Assembly: GCA_001600415.1 (NCBI GenBank)
Contig: BCJX01000002.1
Span: 1,868,513 to 1,932,512 of the forward strand
Origin: Pascua guehoae
Lineage: Eukaryota; Basidiomycota; Tremellomycetes; Trichosporonales; Trichosporonaceae
Length of the DNA stretch: 64,000 nucleotides
Reading direction: 5' to 3'
Shown piece after piece: positions 37,695-54,100 of this stretch. How positions within the stretch are numbered: position 1 is the stretch's first letter; every line of letters starts with the position of its first letter. Both the position numbers and the translations under genes were made by a program. The notes under the pieces are model-generated. The model saw only the letters and a program-made list of their open reading frames with translations, was not told where the DNA came from and did no database searches.

Positions 37695-40368
37695 ATGGAT
37701 CAGCAGCTCATCTCGCTTGTCAACAAGGTACAACGCTGCATAGCGCGCGCGGTTCACAGCTAACAACCTCAGCTTCAAGATGTCTTTGCGTCGATCGGTG
37801 TCGCCAACAACATTGTGGGTGGCGCGGAAACTGACAATGGTATGAACCGCACTGACATTATGCAGGACTTGCCTCAGATCACTGTGATCGGTTCGCAGTC
37901 GAGCGGAAAGTCGTCCGTTCTCGAGGTGAGCTCGGAGACACCGCGCCGAGATGGGGACATACTGACCTTGCAGAACATTGTCGGGCGCGACTTCCTTCCC
38001 CGTGGCACTGGTATCGTTACGCGTCGTCCTTTGGTAAGGCAAGGACACCTGGACCCAGCTAACCCCGCAGGTGCTCCAGCTGATTAACCGACCCGCCGCG
38101 TCCAAGCCCAATGGCGCGGACAAGAAGGATGAGAAGCCTGGTGCGTTTCGTGTCTCATCGGCTCCAGCTGACGTTGCAGAGGACGCTATGGCCAAGACCA
38201 GGATTAATGAGAACAACCCAGACGAGTGGGGAGAGTTCCTGCATCTCCCGGGACAGAAGTTCCACGACTTCCACAAGATCCGCGACGAGATTGTTCGCGA
38301 CACCGAGAAGGCGACGGGCAAGAATGCTGGTGGGTTGGATGACGCCTAGCCAAGAGGGCGTCTGAGCGCGTTGGAAGCTAACGTCAGGTATCTCGCCCAA
38401 CCCTATCAACCTGCGTATCTTCTCGCCCAACGTCCTTACTCTCACCCTCGTTGACTTGCCCGGCTTGACCAAGGTGCCCGTTGGTGACCAGCCACGTGAC
38501 ATTGAGAAGCAGATCCGCGACATGCTTCTCCGTTACATCTCCAAGCCCAACGCTATTATCCTTGCCGTCACCGCTGCCAACACTGACTTGGCCAACTCGG
38601 ATGGTCTGAAGCTTGCGCGCGAGGTCGACCCAGACGGAACGCGTACCATTGGTGTTCTCACCAAGGTCGACTTGATGGACCACGGTACCGACGTCGTGGA
38701 CATTCTTGCCGGCCGTGTTATCCCCCTTCGCCTCGGCTATGTCCCAGTTGTCAACCGTGGCCAGCGTGACATTGACCAGTCACGGTCAATCGCGTCGGCG
38801 CTCGACGCTGAGAAGAAGTTCTTCGAGAGCCACCCCAGCTATGCCAGCAAGGCGCAGTACTGCGGTACACCGTGGCTCGCACGCAAGCTCAACATTATCC
38901 TCATGCACCACATCCGCAACACCCTGCCCGACATTAAGGCACGCATCAGCCAGCAGCTCGTCAAGTACCAGACCGAGCTGGCGGCGCTCGGCGGTGCCCA
39001 GGGCGAGGTTAACCCGGGAAGCCTGGTTCTCGCAACCATCACCGAGTTCTGCGCGGAGTTCCGCTCCGCCATCGACGGTAACACCAACGACCTCTCGGTC
39101 AACGAGCTTTCGGGCGGTGCGCGTATCAGCTATGTCTTCCACGAGCTGTACAACAACGGCGTCAAGAGCATCGACCCCTTTGACCAGGTCAAGGACGGCG
39201 ACATTCGCACAATCCTTTACAACTCGTCTGGTTCGACACCATCGCTCTTTGTCGGCACTAGCGCGTTTGAGATTATTGTCAAGCAGCAGATCCGCCGCCT
39301 CGAGGACCCGTCCCTCCGCTGTGTCGCCCTCGTGTACGACGAGCTCATTCGTATCCTTGGCCAGCTCCTGAACAAGACAACCGTCTTCAAGCGCTACCCC
39401 GAGCTCAAGGAGAAGTTCAACATGGTCGTCATCAACTTTTTCAAGAACTGTATGGCTCCCACAAACAAGTTTGTCGCAGACATGGTTGCCGCGCAGTCCT
39501 GCTACATCAACACCACCCACCCCGACTTCCTCAACGGCCACAAGGCCATGTCGATCGTCCAGGACCGCCTGAACGCCAACAAGCCGCCTGAGAAGATTGA
39601 CCCGAAGAAGAACCAGTTGCCCAAGGACCTCGAGCCTGAGAAGAAGGAGGAGAGCTTCTTTGGCAGTTTCTTCAACAAGGACAAGCCTAAGCGCAAGGGT
39701 GCCGCCGCCATGGAAGCTCCTCCGCCTGTCATCAAGCCCGTCAGCCAGTCGCTCAGTGAGCGCGAGCTCATGGAGACGGAAGTGATCAAGCTGTGAGTCG
39801 AAGCGCGCCACTTCTACCAGGAGCAGAACAGGAGTGTACTATCCACGTGCTGCGCCACCCACTCCTCGTCAAAGAAAAGAAACAAAACAGCCAACCAGCC
39901 ATACCCCATCTCCATCTCCACGTCCCCAACCACTTCAGTCGCGCATGCTAACACCCAAAAGCTTGATCCGCAGCTACTTTAAGCTGGTGCAGCAGGAGAT
40001 GATCGACATGGTCCCCAAGGCCATCATGCTGAACCTGGTCGGATACTCCAAGGACAACATGCAGAAGGAGGTGGGTCGATCCGACCTTCGGCAACCGACC
40101 GTGACTGACATCTAGCTTCTGGAGAACCTGTATGCGAAGCCCGAGGTGCTCGAGGAGATCCTCAAGGAGGCGCCAGAGGTTGTGGCCAGGTGCGTAATCT
40201 GCTTCACCTCTACTCTATCCGTCCGCAACCCACTATCACACTCGACATTCTTCGCCCTCTTTCCTCGTCTTCTCTACGTCTTCAACGCGCTAACGTCGCA
40301 GGCGACAGGAGGTAACTCGGATGCTTGTCGCGCTCGGAAAATCCGAGCAGATCGTCTCCGCTGTCTGA
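37695..40368 (+). CDS. VPS1: Dynamin-like GTPase Vps1
   Basis: Ten exons: 37695-37727, 37773-37814, 37866-37925, 37974-38033, 38071-38140, 38180-38329, 38388-39792, 39962-40070, 40116-40189 and 40302-40368, giving 689 aa, the usual Vps1 length. G1 is GSQSSGKSS (about 34-42). Switch I lies in [10 protein letters not shown]3 is DLPG in [11 protein letters not shown] (about 160) and G4 is TKVD (about 229-232). The middle/stalk region follows, then a variable Lys/Glu-rich insert, and the GTPase effector domain from about 600, ending [10 protein letters not shown]. There is no PH or Pro-rich domain, as in fungal Vps1. The protein self-assembles on membranes and acts in vacuolar sorting, endosome and peroxisome fission. 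Introns 2 (51 bases) and 5 (39 bases) are multiples of three without stops. The end of the last exon is duplicated 8 kb downstream. Confidence 0.96.
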
Positions 40369-40502
40369 GCAGACGTCTGAGCAGCGTTTATACAGTAGAA
40401 GTTGCAAACGTGTTGCATATACCATTGTCGTGGGAGCAGGCGCTTTGTTGCGTGTGGGAGTGGTGCCACATTCAGGGAGTGGTCCACATTCAGGGACTAC
40501 AT
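40334..40502 (+). repeat. Direct repeat copy A: VPS1 3-prime end and 3-prime UTR
   Basis: Starts at TCGGAAAATCCGAGC within the last VPS1 exon and runs through the stop (40366-40368) into the 3-prime UTR, to ATTCAGGGACTACAT. It matches 48418-48589 along its whole length with substitutions and a few indels, in the same orientation. Copy A has a 12-base internal duplication (AGCAGACGTCTG) just after the stop that copy B lacks. Confidence 0.9.
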
Positions 40503-40752
40503 CGTCTCGGCCGTGTGAGCAGCCACTTCCCAGTAGAAGTTCGCGGGCTTGATGCAGAGGTTGGACGCGATGCGAACATGCTCTTTCATACAGGGCTGGC
40601 TGTCTACAACTAACTACTCGGACATCTAAGTACCATCTAAAGTATACGCACATCTACGCGTCAACAAGTCACTGGTGTCCGTGCTAAGTGTCCAGTCCGA
40701 GACCACTGGATGTCAGCAGTGATCGTACAGAACTCGCTTACCTCTCCTTCTA

Positions 40753-42088
40753 TTACATCTGGTTTACATCACGCTCCCCCATTGGTGTCTTGCTCGCCGA
40801 GGCACGCCGGGGCGCCTTGCTGCTCTTGCCTTTCTTGCCGCTCATGCCACCCTTGGCGCCCGTACGACGTTTAGCTGGAGCTGTAAAGCTTCAGTAGTGT
40901 TCCGATGCAAAGCTGAAACCTACGCTTGTCGCTCGTGGGCGGTTTCGACCTCTTCTTGGTAGAGGACTCGGCTGCTGGAGGATCGTCCACTTCCATCTCC
41001 TCGTCCTGGTCCCCACCCCACCACTGTCCCTCCGACTCCAGCTTCTGGAGGTCCTTCTGGTAACCTTGCACCCGTGACTCCCACAAAACGGTCCAGTCGA
41101 GCTGTTCCGGCTTTGCCGGCTGGTAGCGTTTGGCGTTTTTAATGGCCCAGGGGTGTGTCGGGTACATTGCCGTAAACATCTTGTTGTGAGCGAGGCAATA
41201 GCAGATCACTCACGCGATGAATCCACTTCACCGGGTTGTATTGTGTGGAGAACCAAGTCGGAATGTCAAAGTGTACCGCTACCAATGGACTGTTCTGGTA
41301 GCTGCCGAAGGGCACCGTTGTGCCATTCAAATGTTCCAGTACTGTCTCCATCTTGGCATTTTTGATGTTGTCCGGCGCCACGCGGAAAGCGTCAGCGAAG
41401 CGGCGCAATACCTCGAGCCTCTGCACATGTTAATGAGATACAGCGTTCGCATACCCACCATGTAGTACGGGACGAACACCCTGCAGGTAGGGTCAGAACG
41501 CGCGTAGTTCTTGTCCTGGGGCCATATCATGTGCAGGGGACGAGACTCGGCCTGTGCGCGTCCAAACTCGACCTCGACTGCGTGCGCAAACTGAGCAGCT
41601 AATACCAGCGGCCTCATGGCAAAGTCGTGGCCCATCATCAAAGTCCCTCCTACCCTGAGGTAGTTGGGATCGACATTGAGCTGGGACGCCAGCTGGTGCA
41701 CACGGCCGTGGCGCTTGAAAATGGCGGGATCGCATTGTTTCTGGAGGGACACGACATGTCCGGCTCCTGCGCCGCGTAGCTTGATCTGCTCTTCGTGAAA
41801 CAGCTGGTTGGTTGCAGCCCCGAGAAGGTAGATGTCATGGGCCTCCAGGGGAAGAACGGTTGCGTACTGCGTGTACGTCCACTGGTAATCCACGTCGTTT
41901 TCGGGCTCCTCGGAAATGGTCCCGTAGACTTCCATTTCGAATGCTCGATATTGATCTGCAGCGCTGTCAGTCTGACCACTACCACAGCTGCAAGCCCAAG
42001 CGTGGTGCAAGTCGTACAGTGCGTTTGTTGGGTGACGGAGAAGCAGGGAGTGGGTTGTGTCTGAGAACGTCGTCAGCTCGTCATACAT
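40753..42088 (-). CDS. Unassigned protein with basic C-terminal tail
   Basis: Four exons (42088-41459, 41420-41214, 41179-40924, 40880-40753) give about 406 aa from ATG (MYDELTTFSD). The frame extends further upstream without a better start. The body is mixed alpha/beta in composition, with many Trp, Tyr and His (for example HMIWPQDKNYARSD, FDIPTWFSTQYNPVKWIHR). The last 90 residues hold an acidic patch (DQDEEMEVDDPP) followed by a long Lys/Arg-rich tail (STKKRSKPP, KKGKSSKAPRRAS) that resembles a nuclear localisation signal or nucleic-acid-binding tail. I recognise no family. It is convergent with VPS1 and belongs to the block bounded by the VPS1-end repeats. Intron 2 is only 34 bases, so that junction is the least certain. 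Confidence 0.6.
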
Positions 42089-42965
42089 GACCCTAATTGA
42101 CCCAGACCTCTCATCAAGACTTACAAGCGGTGCAGGTTTGAGCAATATGAATCGAAAGGAGTGGGCTGTGAGTGGCAAAACGCTAGAGGATGAATGAGAA
42201 AACAAAACCAACGCGGGTTGACGTGTGCATGTCATGAGAACTAGCATATGGGCCCAGGCAGGCCACAGGGCAGAGGGTCTGGATTCAACAACAAGCCATG
42301 CACCAGGTGAATTGAATACCCTGGAAGGGTGCAAGTCAAAAGACCACTCTGTGCTGTGTGCGTCAGCTTGTCAGAAATCAGCCACTCAGGGAATCGCGCG
42401 CCACATTGAACGCCAGGGTGCTGTCCATCGCCGACAGCTGTGCGATCGTGCAGCACCGAGACGACCAGCCGAGCGCACCAAGGGTTGAATAATATCGCGG
42501 CTTCCAAGCAGTAGTGCAGTACAGGACGGAAGTGTGTTGTACAGTAGTGACATGGATGGTAAGCGCTTGCGGGGGCATGCTCATCGTTGCCCTGCTCCTA
42601 CAGTATAGTAGTTGCTCAAGTGCATGTATTGTGTCCAATTGGGGCGGAGAATCCTTAGACGTCTACGAATGCAGAGTAGGAACGACGCTACCTACAAGCC
42701 ACGGGGACAGTGTTAGAGTGGATAGTCTATCAAGTTGCGTTGAAAAAGGGCGACGTTACTTGGGACATGCGGGGTGGTTGATTTCTTTTGTTGGTGGGTG
42801 GCGGTTGACGGTTGGGTTGTGACGTCAGTGACCACTGGGTCGTTTTTACGGTTGACCGTTGCGCTAGGCGGATGGAGCATTGACGACTTGCACATGGCCG
42901 ATGTCGCATTGTGAAATTACATGTGGTTGCGTGGGGATCGTGAGACCCTCCAGCCGGGTTCACAT
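42089..42965. other. Intergenic, nothing recognised
   Basis: Upstream of the 40753-42088 gene and up to the first hairpin repeat. Short frames only; no family similarity. Confidence 0.45.
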
Positions 42966-43868
42966 GTAACTGGAAGATGACCAGTCGTATAGGCATGTGT
43001 GACTGGACCCAGGAGCAGTGGTATAGACTTGAGCGACTGGTCGCAAGAACAGTCGCACGTTGTGGGAGATTTTCCTCGGCACTCCCGATTCTCTGGGCCT
43101 TGCTCTAGAGACTACTCGCACACACTCCTCGACTCTCGTACAACCAGGACTTGCCCCCTCGCCTCACTCATTTCCCGAGAACCGTATACCGGCGCTACGA
43201 GTCTCGTACGGTGGGATTTTCCTAGGTTCGGGTTCCCCACCGTACGGTTCTCGTAGTTGGCCTCTCCGACTCTCGAGGGTTTTCCTCTCAGACTCTCGAC
43301 AAAACTCACTAGGATTCTCGTACGGTGGCTCCCGCCACCCCACGAATCTCGTGCTCACCGTCCCGGTACTCGTACGGTGCGCCTTCTCTTGCCTTGCTCG
43401 TTCTCCGAGTCTCGTGGTCGATCCTCAGAGAATGTCGGTCAGTGTTCCCCCGATTCTCGGTGACGCCCCGGAGAAGTACACGTGTCTCGTTAATTTGGCG
43501 CCAGCCTCCACCGAACCTCGGTGGGTGGACATTTTCCACCACAACGTCCTCAATAGCAGGTTCGTGTAACTGGAAGATGACCAGTCGTATAGGCATGTGT
43601 GACTGGACCCAGGAGCAGTGGTATAGACTTGAGCGACTGGTCGNNAGAANAGNNANANGTCCTCAATAGCGGGTTCGTGTAACTGGAAGATGACCAGTCA
43701 TATAGGCATGTGTGACTGGACCCAGGAGCAGTGGTATAGACTTGAGCGACTGGTCGGTCACAGAGAAGTCACACATCCTCGATTGCCCATCCCTACTGGA
43801 GGATGACCAGTTGTATAGGTTTGAGTGACTGGACACGGGAGCAGTGATATAGACTTGAGCGGCTGGTC
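42966..43868 (+). repeat. Array of GACCAGTC hairpin repeats (4 copies) with an inserted TCTCG-rich module
   Basis: A unit of about 78 bases starting GTAACTGGAAGATGACCAGT occurs at 42966-43043, 43566-43643 and 43679-43756, and in diverged form at 43793-43868. In copy 1, GACCAGTCG (42979-42987) and CGACTGGTC (43034-43042) are perfect inverted 9-mers around a 46-base loop, so each unit can form a hairpin or looks like a small element with inverted ends. Copies 2 and 3 are 113 bases apart and share the upstream phrase CCTCAATAGCRGGTTCGT. Between copies 1 and 2 lies an unrelated 522-base module. N characters at 43644-43658 indicate assembly uncertainty, so true copy number may be larger. Confidence 0.88.
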
Positions 43869-43912
43869 ACAGAACAGTCACACATCCTCGTCGCGGCTAA
43901 AACTACATGTTG

Positions 43913-43984
43913 CAACATGAGACTGCTCAGCGACCAGTCATGTCTTCTCAACATGGGACTGTTCAGCGACCAGTCATGTCTTCT
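43913..43984 (+). repeat. 36-bp direct duplication
   Basis: Two adjacent 36-base units beginning CAACATG and containing CAGCGACCAGTCATG, differing at two positions. They share the GACCAGTC core with the hairpin array just upstream and may derive from it. Confidence 0.88.
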
Positions 43985-44047
43985 CAACATTGCTCTCATG
44001 TCATATCTCATCGAAAGTATGTAGCACACAAAAGATGTACATGCTAG

Positions 44048-46005
44048 CTACGTCTCGTCCTTGGCAAGCCTCACTTCCTCCTCGATGTAGCCCCGCAAGC
44101 GCTCAAGGACTTTGGGCGGGTAGTTTTCGTCCAGCGAGAGCAATCCTCCGTACTCCCTGCGCCGGAGGTAGTCGGCTGAAGCAGGCAGGGGCCGTTTCCC
44201 GTAGCTGTCGAGCGTACCCTGCGTGACGGATTGCGCCTGCAAGCAGGCGCGGAGAGCTGGCAGTTCCAGGCGCTGTGCTGCGCGTTTGCGGAGGCAAAGT
44301 TTGGTGACGTCGACCATCACGCCCACAGAAACCGGTACATCGTCGTCGAAGAACGGCTTGACCACGATTCCCCATCCCTCGAGGTCGTGCGTTGGTGGGA
44401 AACGCACGTCCTGGTGCTTGGACAACACCCTGTCCCACACGACGAGCATCTTTCGCACAAACGGCGTGCTGAGGATGGTGGCGTATGTAAACTCATCATA
44501 AATATTCACATTGAGCCCATTGTCGGATTCGATGGTGAGATGAAACGCGGCGAGGACGAATTGCTCGACAGAGAGGAGGGCGTACATCGGGAGGACCACG
44601 CTGCTGTCGTCCGGACACACGAGGTCGAAAAAGACCTTGTGGACCCAGTCGGCACGTGGTTTGGTTTGCGTCTCCATGGCAGCTACTCGCGCGTTAACCG
44701 CCTTCCAGCGGTGGTACCACGATCGACCGTCCGTGTGCTGGGTTTGTCCGCCGTATGTGGGAATGTCCTTCGACATTAGCAGTCTTTCTTTCAAGTTGCA
44801 AACTCACGGCTGGGTCTCTCTCGGCCTCTTCTAGGTCCCCGCCTCGGACCGCCTCAATCAAGCCCTGGTCGCATGAAGGGCCAAACGCGTAGAGAGAGGC
44901 ACCGTGGTGTTCCGACGCCAATGTCCGGCCAGCAAAAAGAATCGCACGAAGCCGCGACAAGTCCCGCCCTTCTTCCAAACTGATCAAAGTTAGCGCTTCT
45001 AGCTGGGTATTTGATCGCTCCTCACGCATCAAAGAACACTTGAATGTAGTCGTGTTCCCTATTCCAAAGCCAAGCGACGAATAGATAGACCAGGGGAAGC
45101 TCGATGCCCCTCCCGGCCTCGTTTGGGTCGGCGATGCGCAGCAGGTAAAGGGAAGCGTAGCCTCCCAGCGGGTGCAGGAGCCCATTCTTTTCGCTTGAGG
45201 GATGATCAGCATCTTGACGGCTTGCAATCGCGGACTGCATACCTAAACAATGACCCTTCCTTTCCAAAGGCCAGCTCCAACATGACGTTCTTCCAGGGGG
45301 TCCGATACTTCCTCACAAACTGTAGGATTAGATGCTACGGCTAGAACCGGACGTGAAACACATACTTCTTTCCACAGTGCCTTGGTCGCCTCGACAGCAA
45401 CAAACTCGTTCGCAAACGTGTAAAAGTCCAGAATGGCCTCTTGCCATTGGGGTGTGGCCCTCTCAAAGTTTGGAATCAGCGAGGACACAAGCTGAAAATC
45501 GTCGCCATCGAGGTCGACCTCGTCGCCTGGTGCTTCGAGGAGTGGTTCGTCCTTGTCGTCACTCGGCAACAAGTCGTTGGATCCCAAGGCCTCATCTTTC
45601 AACTCTGCCCAAACGCTGCTCTTGAACAAAGAAATTAGCATTGTCCGCAGGTTAGAAGGACTCACGTCGTCCATTACTGCCTCTATCCCAGCCCGACGTT
45701 CGCTCGGCGGTGCCAGGGAGGGATGAGCCTTAGGCGTTAGCTGGATCCAGTCCCATTGTACCTTCGATCAACGTACGCTGTCATAGTGCAGGCGGTGCAC
45801 AAGGAGGTTCTCGGTCTTCACTTGGGGGCGAGTGGGGATAGTCGGCGACCAGTTGGTAGTTGCACCAGTAGGGAGCTGGAGGAGTCAGTCCTTCCCTCCC
45901 GGATGGATATCACAGCAGTCTTACCGATGCAGACGGACGCAGGTTGCCAGGAGCAGGGTGCTGGTAGTGCCTTTCAGGGACCGTCCCGTGCTTTTTGCGC
46001 ACCAT
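44048..46005 (-). CDS. Unassigned multi-exon protein
   Basis: Exons were traced by frame and splice signals: 46005-45925, 45875-45777, 45728-45666, 45620-45366, 45319 to about 45246, about 45190-45032, about 44980-44809, then about 44779-44048 (stop TAG at 44048-44050). That is roughly 530 aa starting MVRKKHGTVPERHYQHP. A central acidic linker (DDKDEPLLEAPGDEVDLDGDD) separates an N-terminal basic piece from a helical body rich in aromatic and charged residues. Segments such as AILDFYTFANEFVAVEATKA, LVYLFVAWLWNREHDYIQVF and NVNIYDEFTYATIL look like a folded soluble protein; the hydrophobic one is interrupted by charges and is probably not a membrane helix. I recognise no family. It is divergent from the gene at 46413. 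Intermediate exon edges are approximate. Confidence 0.6.
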
Positions 46006-46412
46006 CCTGGGGAATAGTGTTTGGGAATGAGAGGAGTCGGATGAGTAGTTCAAGTGGGAAGATTGAATGCGAGGGGATAACGCATGAGAGTCCAAGTCTG
46101 CATGCAAAGTGATACCATGATTCTGCCATGGGGTGCTACGTGGAGGGTGCTGGAAGCTGGGACGATCCTGCATCGCCTTCTGCGCCCAATGGGCTGCGCA
46201 TTGCGCCTGCCTCCGCGATCTGCTGCGCACCAAGTGTGCTCCACACAGCATTACCCCGTAGGCGTAACTTTGCTGACCAAGTTTGAGACCCCGTGCGACA
46301 CCTAAACGAGTAGTTTGGCTGTTGCGAGTCCCCAAAACGCAAGGTGGCGTATCTTCCCTCGCACTTTGTTACACTCATCTTTCAACAGCTCTACCTTTCA
46401 CAATCGACCATC
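46006..46412. promoter_or_regulatory. Bidirectional promoter of the two unassigned genes
   Basis: The 407 bases between the start codons of the leftward gene (46005) and the rightward gene (46413). No recognised motif; inferred only from the divergent layout. Confidence 0.5.
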
Positions 46413-48417
46413 ATGGAGCCACTTGTTATCCACGACCCATTCAAGGACGAACCGGCGCTGTGAGCAAACCCGCACTGTAGTTCCAGATGGTTGACGCTGA
46501 CCGATGAGCGCCATTGCCGCCCTCGAGCGTCTCCGGCGTCTGGTCGGCGTTAGCACAATGATGCTGGCGTACATAGTTCGGAACGTGTCCATGAGTAATA
46601 ACCCCATCGGACTTTGGGTCCACCATCTACTTCAGGTGGACGTCAAGGACCACAAGTCCGACAAGTCGAACGAGACTTTTAACAGAAATGGATTGCAAGC
46701 GGTAGCCAAGAAGGACCTCGGAAAGGTCGCGAGGTATGTCAATTCCATCAGCCCCAGTTGCCAGTGATAAGGCCCGATGTCGTGCATCCCAGGCATCTTT
46801 GGGCACATCCTTGCTGAGAAAAAGGAAACTGACGCTGCCCTAGCGACTACAATACACTTTGGAACTTTTCCCGCGGACGCTTTCACACTGCCGAGGAGTG
46901 GGCTCTTTCGTGGCGCCGTCAAGCCGCGGCCATGGATCTTCTCATTTCGGTGAGCAACCTGCTAAGTGACGGGATTATATAAATATTACGTAAATACGCC
47001 AACGGCCTGCTGGACACGTCACTCTGGACGCGACAGAGGCGCTACATGCGGCGCCGCGTCTCGTTTCTCTGTTGTGGCAGAGGTATAGTATACCTCTACG
47101 CGACACGTTTCGGCCTCTAAGCTGAGGTGCAAATGCGCGTGGCGCTGACAATAGTACTTTGAGGGCATCACGCCGGATGCCATCTTCTATCTGGTACACC
47201 TGTATCAGTCAAAGACAACCGACCATGTGCGCGATGTTTGGCAGACGACATACTCCGACGTCATGCTGCGAGTGATCGGGGGACTCTGTCATTGGGTACT
47301 TGGTAAGTCTCTCAAACTCTGCTCTGCCTCGAGGACACAAAAGCCTTCCCGCACTTCAACTCTCCATCCTTGTGGGCGGGTCGGGACATAAGGTGTAAGT
47401 GCATGGTTGGCAGGGCCGTGCCCTAGTCGAGTCCCAGCTACCACCCGTCAGCTTCCACACCCTCTGTGATCTCTATGTCGCACCTGAGCACCAACCAGTT
47501 AGACTTGCTGACTACAGGCCGAGTAATGGGCTACCTGAATGAAGATAGCCCTAGCCCTGGCCTTTCGCCCGACGTCATATCCCAAACCCCATCTCTATGG
47601 AAGAGCTCGCCATTTAGCTCTCCGGGTTTGAACCAGCGGCGAGCCTCACGGATGCTGCACCTCTTCTTCTCGGTCCAGTTTGATCTGGCGCTTCTCCGTC
47701 ACGGGAAGGGCATCCTTCCTTTTGAGCCGTGTGCCGAAGCACACATTTACAGTTTTTACGAACGATGGCAGAGGGACCAAGACGGCAAGGCGGTCGAAGC
47801 GGCTTTTGCACGGGCCTGTACAGTGAGTCAACAACGTTGTTAGAGCGGAAGAGGAGCGCGGAGTAGAATCCTGAGGGCTGATTTTACTCTCGTTAGAACT
47901 TTGAGGTGTCAGTGAACGAGGCACGACGCGAGATTCGCCTCGCTCAGTACTACTGGGTCCGCCACTTTACCAACCCTCAAGAGGCAAGTCTTGGGATGAG
48001 GATGGTCGATTTCATTAGTAAGCGTCGATGGTGGACATGGCTAACTCCCTTGTTCGTGACATTCAGACCCATACTGGACGCGGTTACGGGAGCGTTGAGA
48101 TCATTTGGAGGCGAATCACGCAGTACCTCGACTCGAAAAGTATGGTAGCTCTCGACAAGCGCGCCATCAACGTATCAAAAGAACAAGAGCCGGTTGTCGC
48201 CAAGTAGGTAGCATGAGGGAGTTCCAGGTCTAACCGTCAGACTTCGCTATGACGAAGATATGATTGTATCGCCACAGGAGCTGGACCGAGCGTTCCCAGA
48301 CATCCCCTTGGCCAAGGTTATTCAGACTGCTTATAAGCTGCCGGTAAGTTGTGCAACAGCAGACGGGTGCTCGTATCTAGTCGATACTAAGACACTCTCC
48401 AGCGCCGTGGAAAGTAG
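46413..48417 (+). CDS. Unassigned multi-exon protein whose last exon abuts the VPS1-end copy
   Basis: The start is MEPLVIHDPFKDEPA at 46413-46459, then an exon from about 46509 (ALERLRRLVGVST...DLGKVAR). Further exons follow at about 46846-46949 (TLWNFSRGRFHTAEEW), about 47155-47301 (YFEGITPDAIFYLVHLYQ), one or more between 47450 and 47822 (LFFSVQFDLALLRHGKG, EAHIYSFYERW), 47898-48020, about 48067-48203, 48241-48343 and finally 48403-48417 (Arg-Arg-Gly-Lys-stop). The region 47300-47830 has ambiguous splicing. The protein is helical and Trp/Tyr-rich, with no family I recognise. The final intron and 5-codon exon lie within one arm of an inverted repeat, and the TAG stop directly touches the start of the duplicated VPS1 end at 48418. 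That suggests the 3-prime end of this gene was remodelled by the rearrangement. Confidence 0.55.
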
Positions 48418-48863
48418 TCGGAAAATCCGAGCAAATCGTTTCCGCTGTCTGAGTAGCGTTTATACAGTAGAAGATGCGGTCGTGTTGCATATACCATTGT
48501 CGACTCATTGAGGGGAGCAAGTTGTGGCGCTTCATCGCGTGTGGAGGTGGTGCCACATTCAGGGATTGGTCCACATTCAGGGACTACATTACAAAAACGC
48601 CACAAGGAAACAAATACAAGGGGGCACCCACAAGAAGGCAACCACCTGGTGGTACTGATACTACTGGCAGGAAGAGGTGTGGGCAGGTGTGTGTGTGGGT
48701 GGGTGGGTGGGTGGTGGGGGCGGGGGATGGATTGGGTCCCGGGGGGNGGGGAGAGAGGGGTGGGGGGTACGGCCGCGAGTCCACTTGGTTCCAACGACTT
48801 TCCGCGACGCTGGAGAGTGTGTTGGCATCAACAGGACACAACCCATCTGCTGTTGCACGACTT
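48346..48863. repeat. Inverted repeat of about 75 bp enclosing the VPS1-end copy
   Basis: The left arm 48346-48420 (AAGTTGTGCAACAGCAGA ... GACACTCTCCAGCGCCGTGG) matches the reverse complement of 48791-48863 (AAGTCGTGCAACAGCAGA ... ACACTCTCCAGCGTCGCGG) at most positions. The internal 370 bases hold the VPS1 3-prime copy followed by a purine-rich GTGGG microsatellite (48680-48735, with one N). The arrangement resembles a small non-autonomous element with terminal inverted repeats carrying a captured gene fragment. No clear target-site duplication is visible at the arm ends. Confidence 0.8.
48418..48589 (+). repeat. Direct repeat copy B of the VPS1 3-prime end
   Basis: Matches 40334-40502. In its VPS1-equivalent frame it still reads [10 protein letters not shown]-stop. 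The two differences from VPS1 in this coding part (CAG/CAA and GTC/GTT) are both synonymous third-position changes. The 3-prime UTR part is more diverged. It is a fragment, not a second VPS1. Confidence 0.9.
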
Positions 48864-49144
48864 GCCAGCAGCCTGCTAGCAGTCCGAATAACCGGCCAAG
48901 GGGATGTCTGGGAAGGCTCGGTCAGATTGTTGCCGCTATCTGGTTTATACGTCCTTTTAGAAGCACCGTCTACATGTGGGTGGCTTGATGCAGCTTGAAG
49001 TTACATGTGAACATGGTAATGCATATTGCCTGGGTGCTAAAGGAGGCTGTACTTAAAAGCACATCATTTTTACATTGCAAGCACCTCTTCCAACTGGCTA
49101 TACTCTTCCGACTGGCTATACTCTTCTCATAGTCCCCTATGTCT
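48590..49144. other. Convergent intergenic interval
   Basis: Includes the GTGGG microsatellite (one N at 48727) and the right arm of the inverted repeat. No gene seen. It separates the converging ends of the 46413 gene and the RNase III-like gene. Confidence 0.5.
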
Positions 49145-50270
49145 CTACTCGTCAACGATGAAAGGGTCGGTGACCGTGCCCGAGCCGCGCAGTGGCCCCT
49201 TGCGTGCAGTGGCGGCAACGGGCTGGGCGTTGTTCGCCTTGGGTGCGAGGAGCCGAACAGGGCGGGGCCGGTAGGAGTCCAAGAGCACGCAGCGCGATGG
49301 TTGTGAGGCCACAGCACGCGCAGGTACCGGGCGGACCGGAGAAGACTCGGGTCGCTGCGACGCCGGAGTCGGGTTGGCCTTGTTGGTCTTGTCCTGGGCG
49401 ATTGGCTGGGCAGAGATCTTGGCTGCGCGACTACGGGCGTATGGCTTGGGAGCATGGCGACGCTTCGGGGCGATGTGGCGCTGTTGGATGACAGCATCTA
49501 CCCACGGCTGCGCCAACGACTGGAACCAGCGGCGAGCGATGTCGGGCCCTGATATTAACACCGAGCTCACTGTCATGACGGTTACACTCACCCAGGGCTT
49601 GCTCAGTGGCAGCCAGCACCGCCTCCATCAGATCTCCTGGGAGCTTCTGGCTGTCAGCGCTATGCTTGCACACAAACCGTACTGGAGGGATATTATCGAG
49701 CTTGCGCCTGTTCCCGGGTGCTCGACGGAGGGCTTCTGCAACGATTCCGGCCTCGATACAGATCTGGCCCAGCGTGGCATTACTGCCGCACTCCGAGACG
49801 AGGGTCTGATGTCAGTCTAAGCACCTACAGTGAGGAAGGGCATGCCGGGGAGCTCTACTCACGTGGCGCTGCAGGAGATTCATATTGAGCTGCTTGCCGA
49901 GACCAACCAGTACGCTGTGCACAATGTCGTCGCCGTCAAAGGCGAGCTGACGGTGCTCGTTGTTGCCGCGCACGTCGTATGCGAGCTCGTTAAAGCGGGG
50001 AATCCAAAGGAACGGCGCTTCCAGTGCCTGGCGCAAGAGCTCAGAGCCCACTGCGGCCGTCTCCGCCGAATACAGGCGAGGATGGGGGTTGGTGGCAGCG
50101 TGCTCCAACTCTAGCAGGAACAGAGGCGTCGATGGAGGCCAGGTCGATGGCAGATGAGCTGGTGCGTGCCGTACTTGAGGCCAATGACGGGGAAGTCGGA
50201 GGAGGCGGCGTGTCGCGCGCACCGGCCGCGGATCCTCAGCACTGCGTGGAGGCGACATACGGGGCATCAC
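49145..50270 (-). CDS. RNase III-fold protein, probably catalytically impaired
   Basis: Three exons (50270-49863, 49805-49592, 49548-49145) give about 341 aa. The middle resembles one RNase III domain. FNELAYDVRGNNEHRQLAFDGDDIVHSVLVG corresponds to the signature helix (family: E-R-L-E-F-L-G-D), TLVSECGSNATLGQICIEAGI to the LVSN-x-x-L segment, and LPGDLMEAVLAATEQALG to the second metal-binding helix (D-x-x-E-A). The second Asp of the signature and the D/E pair of the last helix are present, but the first catalytic Glu aligns with Ala (LAFDGD). The C-terminal 100 residues are basic and Pro/Ala-rich, without a visible double-stranded RNA-binding domain. The possible role is RNA binding or ribosome/mitochondrial RNA processing. 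The family call rests on motif reading only. Confidence 0.6.
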
Positions 50271-51124
50271 GACGGGGTGCGTTTGTCGCTATTGTCCGAT
50301 GAAAAGGTGATGACTTGAGCGCGCGATGAGTAGTGGAGAGTTGAGGGAAAGGGAAGAGGGGGTCGCGAAGGAGTGTGAGGGTGGTGAGAGAGGAGAAGGG
50401 GGGGAGCAGAGCAGAGGGAATGAATGAATCACTACACGAAACGAGAGAGGGAAGAGGAGGGAGAGGGAATAGAGAGGGAGGTAGGGAGGGTGATGAAAAG
50501 AAGGAAGGGAGAGGAAGGGGATAAGAAGAAGGTAAACAGAGACAAACCGAGCTGGTGACTCGTGACAACTGACTCACGGGTGGCTGGGCAGGCCATGGCG
50601 AGTGCGTGACGTGTATATGTGTGTAACCGTGCAGGGCCCCACACCCCACTTGTCTGGTGGCACTTCATATAAAGCATGTCAAGTGCAACTCGCGCCTCAC
50701 ATATTCACCGTGCAATGAGAAAAATAAGAAGAATAAAACAAGCACGGTGCTAGAGCAGAATCAGACACGCAATCAATGTCCTCTGAAATCCGCAGAGTTG
50801 CCACCCAGAAACCCATGGAATCCATGCCTACTGCACACTACACCCGTTTCTGGACCCTTTGCTGGTGCTTGTGTCCTCCCGTCTCCCCCTCCATTCCGCC
50901 GCAAAACACCACCCATACGCTCAACACCGCGGCAAACCCCATCTTTCTCTGTATGTTATAAGATCATGCAAGTAGGTCTAGTCTACAATCTAGTTCCATA
51001 TCACCCCAACCACGATCATGCTTGACCCAGCTCCCCCGCTCGCCTCTGCGCGCCGATCTACAAGCCTGCGCTCCAACACGTTTCTATCGCGTTTCTACAC
51101 GCGTCTCACGTCAATACTCGCCGC
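50271..51124. other. Promoter of the RNase III-like gene and 3-prime flank of the karyopherin gene
   Basis: The interval between two minus-strand genes. 50330-50530 is strongly purine-rich on the plus strand (GAGGGA words), hence pyrimidine-rich on the transcribed strand, a common fungal promoter/leader character. No further gene. Confidence 0.5.
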
Positions 51125-54100
51125 CTACGCGAGGAACTTTTCGAGCGAGTTCTTGGCACCTGCATCGGCCTTGTCCCAGTACGGACCAAGCCCGACCGCG
51201 CCAGCGCGCGTAAGCACGTCGACAACAAACGCGCGAAGCGGAACAGCGTAGGCCGGGTCGGCGCTCTCGAGCTCGGCGCGGCGCACACCTTCCGGAGTGT
51301 GCTCAATTTCGCCCCAGTACATCCCATTGTCGTCCTTCCAGTGGTTCACTGTGATCCTGAATGTCAGTCAGATACAGGTGACGGGCACGTACTCTGGGGC
51401 GCCGGGGTTGCCTTCAACGGGCTGGACCTCGCCAAGCACATCGAGGAACATGTTCACTGGATACTTGTCAGCACACCTCACAAAACGCACAGCAAGTACT
51501 CACGGAACTCGCCGTCAAGGCGCTCCAGGGCCTGTTGGTGGCCCGTGGTCAGGAGCGAACCCACGCCCATTGCGACGGCCTTGCGGGACCGCGCACCGCC
51601 GACGTAGTCAAAGTTGCGCCACATGGCGTCAAGGACCTCCTCGAGCAGCTTGTGGCCATCCTTGTGGGTGACACGCGCCTGCTCGGACACAAGCTGGAGG
51701 AAGATTGTGGGATCGCGCATTGCGATGCGGGCGAGAATGTCGAGGTAGGCGGCGAGGACGGTGCCAGACGCCTTGTCGTCCTCGAGCGCAGTAAGAATAT
51801 GGCTGAAGAGACCCGACTCGAGGAGCACGCCGGCAACAGCCTGCAGAGGGGCTGTGCGAACAAAGAGAGACACCGTGGCGAGAATGCGCTGCACATTCTG
51901 GTAGTTCTTGCCAGACGTCACGATAGCCTTCATGAGCGAAGCGCCAATCACTGGGCCATAGTTCTGCAGTGATCAGCGATGTTGTTCCTGACATCACAGG
52001 TACTCACCTCAACGATTCCCGCCGCATCGAGAAGAAGGTACGAGTCGAGCAGCGGCAGGAACTTGGTCAGAAGGTCCATGTTTTCGCTGATGGCCCCAAC
52101 CAGACCGGGCAAAAGGCGAACGAGACCAGTCTGCGGGGTAGGCTGGTATGGCGAAGCTGCGTTCCACAGCGCGGTCTGCCACCTGGTATGTCAGATGCTG
52201 TCTTTCAGCAAGGGATTCGCAACTCACAGAATAATCCCATCCTCCTCAAAGTAGTCCTTCGCAGGCTGCTGCAGACTCTCCTCGATAAGGGGAATAACCA
52301 GCTCCATGAGGTTGCCAGACGTCTCCTTCGCGGCCTGGTTGATTAGCACGGTAATCACCCCAGATACTCACGGCCACAATCTTAGTCGTCAGAACAACAA
52401 GGGACGCCTTGAAGAGCCATTCGCCCTCCAGACCCGTGGCGCTGTGCCAAAGGCCGGGGATGGCCTGCGCAAGGGTAGCGACGTAAGGCAGGATCTGGGA
52501 GAATGTTAGCCTCCGCACAAGCGTACTCCTGCTCGACTGACCTTGTCTTCCACACGTTCGATAATCACACCGATCGTCTCGTTCACGTAGCGCTTGCCGT
52601 CAAGGGTAGCGGCCTCACCCAGAAGCTTGATCCTGCGGTGGTTAGAATACACGACCTTGTAACCACTCACAGTTCTTCGACCGTCTTTTGGATGTACGGC
52701 ACAAAGTAGGCCACCTCGAGCTCCCATAACTGCAATGTTAACAATTGCAGCCATAACAGCAGCAAGCACACTCACGTCGACACACTCCTTGATAGCGATC
52801 GCGGCAGTGAGGTGCACAGCCATGTCGGTAGACTCGGACCGCTCCGACAGAAGGTGGATGAGGAGCTGCCAAACCGCATCGAGCTTTGCGCACTCCTCAT
52901 CCGAGCCGACCCACTGACCGACGAGCCACGCGACACGGCGCTTCAGGATACGGTGCCTGTATGGGTTAGCACAATCAGTCGCACCGAACTCACAGAGGAA
53001 GACCCTGGCCCATCCACGAGCCGATTCCATGGAGGAAGGTGTTAAAGTTGATCCCGCCGTGGGTTGCCAGCGAGCGGCTTAAGCGTCCGACAGCGCAGTA
53101 GACGGCCTCCTTGCGGAGAATGTTGGGGAGGTTGTCGGGAGAAAGTGCCTCGGCTTCGGCGAGGATCTTGAGCATCTCGGGTTCAATGGGCTTCCTGTCG
53201 GCGGGGAGATTGCGGCATGCATTGTTGAGTGCAATGAGAACACGCTCCGCGCAAGGCTGGCAGGTTAGCACGATGTGGACTGGGCGGCACCTACCCTGAA
53301 CTCGAATGCCCAAGCCTCGCCGTCAAGGTTCTCCGCAACCAGCCACTCTTCGGGCTCGTCCTCGAGGGACTCGAGGTCCGTAGAGTTAAGTGGCAGGAGC
53401 TTGTCGATTAAGAGGTGGAGGGCGGAGAGAATAAAGTCGCGGGTAAAGACTGGTGAGTTAGCAACATACTAACAAGGATAACTCACTGTCCTGGTGATCA
53501 ACGGCAAGGATGGGAAGGATGTCCTTGAAGAGGAGCATCCCGAGAAGGAGGAAGCGCTTAGGGTAGGGGTTGGAAGGTTCGTCTGCGGTGTCAGAGGTCA
53601 ATATTGCCAGACTGTGCTTACCATCATTAGAAATAGCACCATCTGTGCCGGCCATGACACCGCCCACAGCCCCCCACCACCAGCCGACACCGTTTGTCGC
53701 GCCCTCGAGACGGCAGAAGCCCTTGGCATCGAGTGCGATCATGGCACGCCACCACTTGCCAATTGCGCGGAGGTGCTTGATGAGCGAGAGGGCGAGCTTG
53801 GAGAACTCTGGTGGGGTGGGGTTCGGGACATGCTGGAGGATGCGGAGACGGTGCTCCTGGATTATGGGAGCGAAGTGCACCGAGTGCTGGAGGAGGAGGC
53901 GGATCTGATCGCGTCAGCCCAAGCCCTGCCGCTGTAGACTTACATGTTCGACGCCCTTGGCAGACTGGAGGTTCTTGGCCTTACCCCAATGCCACTGACA
54001 GAAGCGCGCGAGGATCCTGAAAGCTGGTCAGCAGATGAACATGGGGTGGCAGCTTACTTGAAGGCATAGCGACCTGCTTCGCTAATGACCCAGTCAACAT

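What the first reader, a model, noticed from the sequence alone, without database searches (positions are those of the whole stretch)
40334..48589. An 8-kb block of unassigned genes is bracketed by two direct copies of the VPS1 3-prime end
Positions 40334-40502 (last 35 bases of VPS1 coding plus 3-prime UTR) and 48418-48589 are homologous over about 170 bases in the same orientation. Everything between is three genes I cannot assign plus a repeat array, while recognisable conserved genes resume outside. The coding part of the distal copy differs from VPS1 only by two synonymous third-position changes, as if it derives from a working VPS1 of another allele or lineage. This is formally like integrative elements that insert at a gene 3-prime end and restore it. 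The alternatives are a tandem duplication followed by decay, or capture of a gene fragment.
Basis: partly seen in the sequence, partly recalled or inferred. Interest (0 to 1): 0.82.

Follow-up and report, generated by a model that had tools for sequence, protein, structure and literature searches.

The report
Duplicated VPS1 tail around orphan genes
In a yeast-like fungal genome, the last few codons and the untranslated end of a housekeeping gene (VPS1) occur again about 8 kb downstream, on the far side of three genes with no recognised relatives; it looks like a scar of local DNA duplication or insertion rather than a mobile element, although the comparison with related genomes that would settle this could not be run.

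Summary
Positions 40334-40502 (35 coding bases of VPS1 plus 3' UTR) recur at 48418-48589 in direct orientation: 157 aligned bases, 14 substitutions, 3 gap runs, E 1.3e-37. The genome search lists only these two places. Between them lie three spliced genes without recognised domains: A (406 aa), B (544), C (403). C's stop codon abuts the distal tail, which may serve as its 3' UTR.

No recombinase was recognised; A and C have no other full copy. Best reading: repeated repair- or replication-based local duplication/insertion at the VPS1 3' end. A dedicated integrative element is not excluded but lacks positive evidence. The synonymous-only argument is weak for the distal tail alone (P 0.085). No empty-site test was possible. 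By size the genome is probably Pascua guehoae, where about a third of proteins are unique, so orphan status is expected.

The parts
37695..40368 (+). VPS1 gene (dynamin-like GTPase), intact; the last 35 coding bases lie in the repeat
   Evidence: Spliced model; 83-85% identical over full length to VPS1 of Cutaneotrichosporon, Apiotrichum and Vanrija. The 706-aa model retains one in-frame 51-base intron (37815-37865), judged by comparison with the 688-690 aa Trichosporonales relatives.
40334..40502 (+). tail 1: proximal copy of the VPS1 3' end (35 coding bases plus 3' UTR)
40501..40541 (+). tail 2 (probable): short third VPS1-tail copy (ATC GTC TCG GCC GTG TGA = IVSAV-stop, 3 synonymous differences), starting where tail 1 / tail 3 homology ends
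   Evidence: Score 29 against a maximum of 26 in 4729 tiles of 47 bases (stretch placed by hand). With the zone begun at 40503: score 25, reached by 10 of 400 shuffles and 6 of 872 1-kb segments, maximum 27. BLAST of the longer tail: E 0.54 in 260 kb, where one unrelated place scores better, E 0.044
40753..42088 (-). gene A, 4 exons, 406 aa (start codon uncertain), no recognised domain, no other copy found
42955..43890 (.). 113-bp tandem repeat array, interrupted by a TIR element
43061..43543 (.). MITE-like element inserted in the array (ends TGTGG...CCACA; ACGT on both sides of this copy); four other full or partial copies in the genome
44048..46005 (-). gene B, 8 exons, 544 aa, no recognised domain; decayed fragment B' at C2:1786922-1787347 and distant relatives at C2:916163-917262
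46413..48417 (+). gene C, 10 exons, 403 aa, no recognised domain, no other full copy found; stop TAG 48415-48417 directly abuts tail 3
48418..48589 (+). tail 3: distal copy of the VPS1 3' end; by position a likely 3' UTR for gene C (inference)
   Evidence: GGAA at 48420-48423 shared by C's end (judged by C') and VPS1
48789..48923 (-). C': inverted, decayed copy of gene C's 3' end including its last intron
   Evidence: 135 aligned bases, 22 substitutions, 2 gap runs; E 2.2e-28; a genome search with 48284-49140 lists no further copy of C or C'
48923..48950 (+). tail 4 (doubtful): VPS1-tail-like stretch, QIVAAIW, at the edge of C'
   Evidence: Against tail 3 it scores 25: reached by 0 of 4726 tiles, 2 of 400 shuffles, 6 of 872 segments; against tail 1 only 20; not listed by BLAST at E up to 10

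Best explanation
The block is the product of repeated, error-prone local rearrangement at the VPS1 3' end: repair- or replication-based duplication/insertion with short homologies, followed by decay. It is not a dedicated mobile element. A stretch from downstream of a VPS1 gene carrying A, B and C (itself beginning with a partial VPS1 tail, tail 2) was joined so that VPS1 keeps a full 3' end (tail 1), while the end of gene C was fused to a second VPS1 tail (tail 3) through about 4 bp of homology. VPS1 is intact today. Gene C ends directly against VPS1's last codons and 3' UTR and so probably uses that UTR and its poly(A) signal. Shown: tails 1 and 3, C', B', open reading frames, the junction sequence; probable: tail 2. 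Inferred: microhomology as cause, order of events, UTR use by C.
For: Tails 1 and 3 and a probable third tail at the end of their homology. Inverted C'. Decayed B' elsewhere. Divergences are of the same order: tails 8.9% (CI 5.0-14.5), C/C' 16.3% (10.5-23.6), B/B' 13.0% over 216 bases (8.8-18.2); tails against C/C' Fisher p 0.07. C', taken as the older form of C's end, shows GGAA shared by both partners at the C / tail 3 junction. No recombinase recognised and no other full copy of A or C. Yeast segmental duplications arise in part by template switching at microhomologies or microsatellites (PMC2518615, abstract and passages seen); a GGTG-type tract lies at 48686-48718.
Against: A plain tandem duplication predicts homology continuing beyond 40502/48589; none was found. 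So a second event (loss or replacement) or an insertion with flanking duplication is needed. C' and B' are both inverted relative to C and B and lie on opposite sides, which one simple event does not give. A 4-bp microhomology is easily chance, and is shorter than the 5-10 bp given for yeast in the paper cited. Tail 2 is not significant in a plain BLAST of 260 kb (E 0.54).
Confidence: 0.6

Rival explanations
1. A DNA circle carrying a VPS1 tail plus A, B and C (closed where C's end met VPS1's tail) integrated by one homologous crossover at a resident VPS1 tail of a diverged lineage. This gives VPS1-tail-block-tail in one step.
For: Predicts a block between direct tails with a short-homology closure at C/tail 3 and different right flanks. 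Synonymous-only coding differences in tails 2 and 3 fit tails from working genes. Precedent for circular intermediates in yeast: region B of wine yeasts (PMC3053389, abstract and passages seen).
Against: No circle, donor or empty site seen. The precedent integrated by nonhomologous recombination, with 2-3 bp in common at four of six insertions and no long flanking repeats. Gives no account of C' or B'.
Confidence: 0.17
2. Tandem duplication of a larger unit (block plus VPS1), then loss of the second VPS1 except its last 35 coding bases and UTR.
For: Tail 3 coding changes are synonymous; decayed partial copies of B and C exist.
Against: No other VPS1 sequence was found in 40560-50500 (best hit 19 bases, E 0.27). 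The 2-of-2 synonymous pattern has P 0.085 under random change, so it demands no functional second VPS1.
Confidence: 0.13
3. A site-specific integrative element that targets the VPS1 3' end and restores it, with A, B or C as an unrecognised recombinase; tails 2 and 4 and C' are relics of earlier insertions (accretion).
For: Serial same-direction tails and a second C relic at one gene end.
Against: No domain above cut-off, no PDB relative at E 0.1, one site in the genome, no defined att core, tails of different length.
Confidence: 0.06
4. Assembly artefact (collapsed haplotypes or misjoin).
For: A few N letters inside the region show imperfect assembly.
Against: Tails differ by 9% plus indels and the C / tail 3 and tail 1 / tail 2 junctions are free of N; the VPS1 protein search gives no second near-identical VPS1.
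Confidence: 0.04

Closest known systems
Segmental duplication by microhomology/microsatellite-induced replication in yeast (PMC2518615, abstract and passages seen)
   Same: Local direct duplication, short homology at a junction, joined gene ends, microsatellite nearby
   Different: Here the copies no longer match beyond the tail, there are extra short and inverted relics, and the copies are diverged
Region B of wine yeasts, spread through extrachromosomal circles (PMC3053389, abstract and passages seen)
   Same: Multi-gene block inserted mostly between genes
   Different: Region B shows circular permutation and many sites with little or no homology at breakpoints; here one site flanked by about 170-bp direct repeats
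Bacterial integrative elements / genomic islands at gene 3' ends (recalled)
   Same: Gene 3' end duplicated around the block, gene kept whole
   Different: No integrase recognised, no second site, no empty site shown, eukaryotic spliced genes
Starship giant transposons (PMC12289983, search listing with start of abstract only)
   Same: Multi-gene blocks in fungi
   Different: The listed abstract places them in Pezizomycotina; no tyrosine-recombinase domain found here; 8 kb only

Membership tests
Integrative element at a gene 3' end | Direct repeat of the gene 3' end at both ends, gene restored | tested here: met
   Tails 1 and 3, intact VPS1
Integrative element at a gene 3' end | Encoded site-specific recombinase | tested here: not met
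   No Pfam match above cut-off in A, B, C; one sub-threshold hit in A (E 0.13) to an unrelated family. An unrecognised enzyme is not excluded
Integrative element at a gene 3' end | Empty site or same element at other sites | tested here: inconclusive
   No other full copy of A or C in the own genome; no relatives' DNA available
Replication/repair-based segmental duplication | Direct copies with short homology at the junction | tested here: met
   GGAA at C/tail 3, judged through C'; weak because short
Replication/repair-based segmental duplication | Homology continues through the duplicated unit | tested here: not met
   No match between about 2 kb after tail 1 and after tail 3 beyond 12-base words, E 0.5; could be lost by decay
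Replication/repair-based segmental duplication | Remnants of a second copy of the unit | tested here: met
   C' beside tail 3 and B' 126 kb away, both inverted
Circle integration by homologous crossover | Circular permutation or circle intermediate | not testable with these tools
   Needs relatives or eccDNA data
LTR or TIR transposon | Transposase/pol gene or terminal inverted repeats with target duplication bounding the block | tested here: not met
   Repeats are VPS1 tails, no TE domain recognised; the TIR element found is the nested 0.48-kb one
Starship | Tyrosine-recombinase captain at one end | tested here: not met
   No such domain by Pfam in A, B or C

The most novel reading that the evidence does not exclude
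The VPS1 3' end is a recurrent integration target in this fungal lineage: elements carrying gene C-like cargo and their own VPS1 3' end have entered at least twice (A-B-C block, C' relic), each time handing VPS1 a new, working 3' end and leaving an older tail behind. This would be a eukaryotic counterpart of accretion at bacterial gene 3' ends, driven by an unrecognised recombinase among A, B and C.
Probability: 0.06. Interest if true: 0.82.

Novelty: new member of a known kind. Interest (0 to 1): 0.3.

Why it matters
If ordinary, it is a readable scar of how orphan genes settle beside a housekeeping gene and how a gene can acquire a ready-made 3' UTR. If the novel reading held, fungi would have integrative elements that use and restore protein-gene 3' ends. 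Comparing the VPS1 downstream region between strains of this species and its relatives would decide it directly.

Tried and rejected
Hybrid genome with a second VPS1: rejected; the protein search gives one near-identical VPS1 and weaker dynamin-like hits, and the tail matches two places.

Retrotransposed copies: rejected for C' and B', which keep intron sequence. The tails start inside the last exon, so they say nothing.

LTR or foldback element: rejected. The C/C' inverted pair with tail 3 between its arms has no further copy in the genome search.

Viral origin: exon pieces of A and B found no relative in viral contigs; C was not scanned.

Structure prediction of A exon 1 and B last exon from single sequences failed (mean pLDDT 29.3 and 33.5), so no fold search was made. 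PDB sequence searches with A, B and C were empty at E 0.1. NCBIfam was not run (one search failed); PHROGs and PADLOC were not tried.

Base composition: the block is 54.7% G+C against 58.3% for the window. Of 222 8-kb stretches (1-kb steps) 15 are at or below it; by their listed positions 14 of these overlap a long N run and the other is the block itself, so the block is the lowest-G+C stretch there. GC3 is 0.69, 0.70 and 0.64 for A, B and C and 0.78 for VPS1. This would fit foreign origin but equally weakly constrained orphan genes, so I gave it no weight. Introns are mostly short with CTAAC/CTGAC-like motifs near the acceptor, as in VPS1.

Paper searches for fungal integrative elements at gene ends and for segmental duplications with truncated copies and orphans listed nothing to the point; these are only two queries in the open-licence library. 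Seven papers name Pascua guehoae; of these I read parts of PMC7026411 and saw passages of PMC12820176.

Full report
What was checked. They align over 157 bases with 14 substitutions (10 transitions) and 3 gap runs; the coding part holds 2 substitutions, both synonymous transitions. In a self-comparison of 230 kb (window plus 17 of the 20 fetched stretches) this pair has E 1.3e-37. The other repeats listed with at least 50 columns are the array, the C/C' and B/B' pairs, and other dispersed or tandem pairs. I saw no second duplicated gene 3' end among them, but I did not annotate the genes outside the window. In the whole genome (33,646,469 bases, 28 contigs) the 169-base query lists only these two places. 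The VPS1 protein finds one near-identical gene; the hits on C12 and C4 are dynamin-like at 46-60%.

The genome. No name is given. VPS1 is 83-85% identical over its full length to Cutaneotrichosporon cavernicola, C. oleaginosum, Apiotrichum porosum and Vanrija humicola, which points to the order Trichosporonales. (One C. oleaginosum entry covering 88% of the query is 88% identical, and the entry ranked first by bits, labelled Quercus suber, is 66%.) The size fits Pascua guehoae JCM 10690 (33,698,914 bases, 35 scaffolds) in Table 1 of PMC7026411 (section 3 part 1 read). That table gives it 3,277 unique proteins of 10,065, the highest count in the table. The assignment to P. guehoae is my inference from size alone. 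If right, lack of relatives is common among genes of this genome and is no mark of a foreign block.

The block. Hand-made gene models give A (4 exons, 406 aa, minus strand), B (8 exons, 544 aa, minus) and C (10 exons, 403 aa, plus), all open, with GT-AG introns (one GC-AG in C). Pfam finds nothing above cut-off; A has one sub-threshold hit (E 0.13). PDB sequence searches are empty at E 0.1. In the 5.8-billion protein collection C (4886 candidates) and B (7997 candidates scored) had no hit at E up to 1. VPS1 served as a control and showed that proteins of the order are held there; that search is limited to proteins sharing exact 5-residue words. In the own genome A and C match only themselves by protein. 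B has a decayed fragment B' (C2:1786922-1787347; 216 aligned bases of its larger piece, 13.0% substitutions, 7 gap runs) and distant relatives at C2:916163-917262. The array of 113-bp units at about 42955-43890 is interrupted by a TIR element with four other full or partial copies in the genome.

First, the homology of the two tails ends at 40502, and there another VPS1 tail seems to begin: 40501-40518 reads ATC GTC TCG GCC GTG TGA (IVSAV-stop), three synonymous differences from VPS1, followed a little later by CAGTAGAAGTT as in the UTR. Placed by hand on 47 bases it scores 29, against at most 26 in 4729 tiles. In the less favourable test with the zone starting at 40503 it scored 25, which 10 of 400 shuffles and 6 of 872 real 1-kb segments (both strands) reach, their maximum being 27. 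Against it: BLAST with 40300-40520 gives this match E 0.54 in 260 kb, and one unrelated place scores better (E 0.044). Its place at the very end of the homology is the further argument, and I regard it as probably real. Second, 48789-48923 is an inverted copy of the last part of gene C including its last intron (135 aligned bases, 16.3% substitutions, two gap runs). Third, a stretch at 48923-48950 resembles the VPS1 tail again (QIVAAIW; the seven VPS1 relatives fetched end in IVAAV, IIAAV or IVASV). Against tail 3 it scores 25, reached by 2 of 400 shuffles, 6 of 872 segments and 0 of 4726 tiles; against tail 1 only 20. It is not among the BLAST hits at E up to 10. It overlaps the edge of C' and may be chance.

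The junctions. Gene C stops with TAG at 48415-48417 and tail 3 starts at 48418. C' gives an independent view of how C's end may once have continued (GTCGTTGGAACC). VPS1 reads GCGCTCGGAAAATCC and the junction reads GTAGTCGGAAAATCC, so GGAA is shared by both partners. This fits joining by microhomology but is short. Beyond the tails there is no similarity between the two right flanks (12-base words only), and no other VPS1 sequence was found in 40560-50500.

The synonymous argument. With transitions weighted four times transversions, a random change in the tail is synonymous with probability 0.29-0.31. Two of two has P 0.085, three of three in tail 2 P 0.029, jointly 0.0024. The distal tail alone does not show descent from a working gene; with tail 2 the hint is fair, but the joint figure ignores that tail 2 was found because it matches.

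How it most likely arose. The facts to join are: two clear and one probable same-direction VPS1 tails of different length, one block with open genes, decayed inverted relics of C and B, junctions without long homology, no recognised recombinase, and one site. Repeated local rearrangement by repair or replication template switching explains these with known processes. In yeast, about half of the spontaneous segmental duplications studied arose at microhomologies or low-complexity tracts, and such joints can make chimeric genes (PMC2518615, abstract and passages seen). The remaining difficulty is that a plain tandem duplication should leave homology beyond the tail; a second event, or an insertion with flanking duplication, is needed. 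Integration of a circle carrying a VPS1 tail is a neat one-step rival with a precedent for circles (PMC3053389, abstract and passages seen), although that precedent integrates without long homology. A dedicated integrative element would need a recombinase and an empty site; neither is shown, and the second could not be tested because no relatives' DNA was available.

Consequence. VPS1 keeps its last codons and UTR. Gene C ends directly against a second copy of that UTR and probably uses it (inference; testable by 3' RACE).

Verdict. The integrative-element reading is unsupported but not refuted. The best-supported class is an old scar of local duplication/insertion in a genome rich in lineage-specific genes.

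Noticed in passing
43061-43543; other copies C8:8094-8578, C4:568691-569173, C20:507790-507955, C8:1069520-1069613: An element of about 483 bp with TGTGG...CCACA ends sits inside the 113-bp array with ACGT on both sides; other copies are 87-89% identical (two nearly full length, two partial), and their flanks show no clear identical 4-bp duplication. A MITE-like family.
   Followed up: partly
49851-50645 and 10.7-11.6 kb left of the window start: The unassigned region downstream of the block has an inverted relative about 60 kb away at 66-70% nucleotide identity.
   Followed up: no
5.6-15 kb right of the window end (69597-79028 in window numbering): A cluster of tandem or dispersed direct repeats at 65-100% identity, perhaps a local gene family.
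   Followed up: no
37815-37865: My first VPS1 model kept an in-frame 51-base intron (17 extra residues compared with relatives); VPS1 is then about 689 aa, close to its relatives.
   Followed up: partly
51478-51933: An importin-11-like exon (Pfam TPR_IPO11, E 2.1e-29) lies to the right, so a recognisable conserved gene resumes there.
   Followed up: no
48686-48718: A GGTG-type tract lies between tail 3 and C', a possible fork-stalling site.
   Followed up: no
C2:916163-917262 (L023): Distant relatives of gene B (26-30% identity), about 1 Mb from the window, so B belongs to a small family in this genome.
   Followed up: partly
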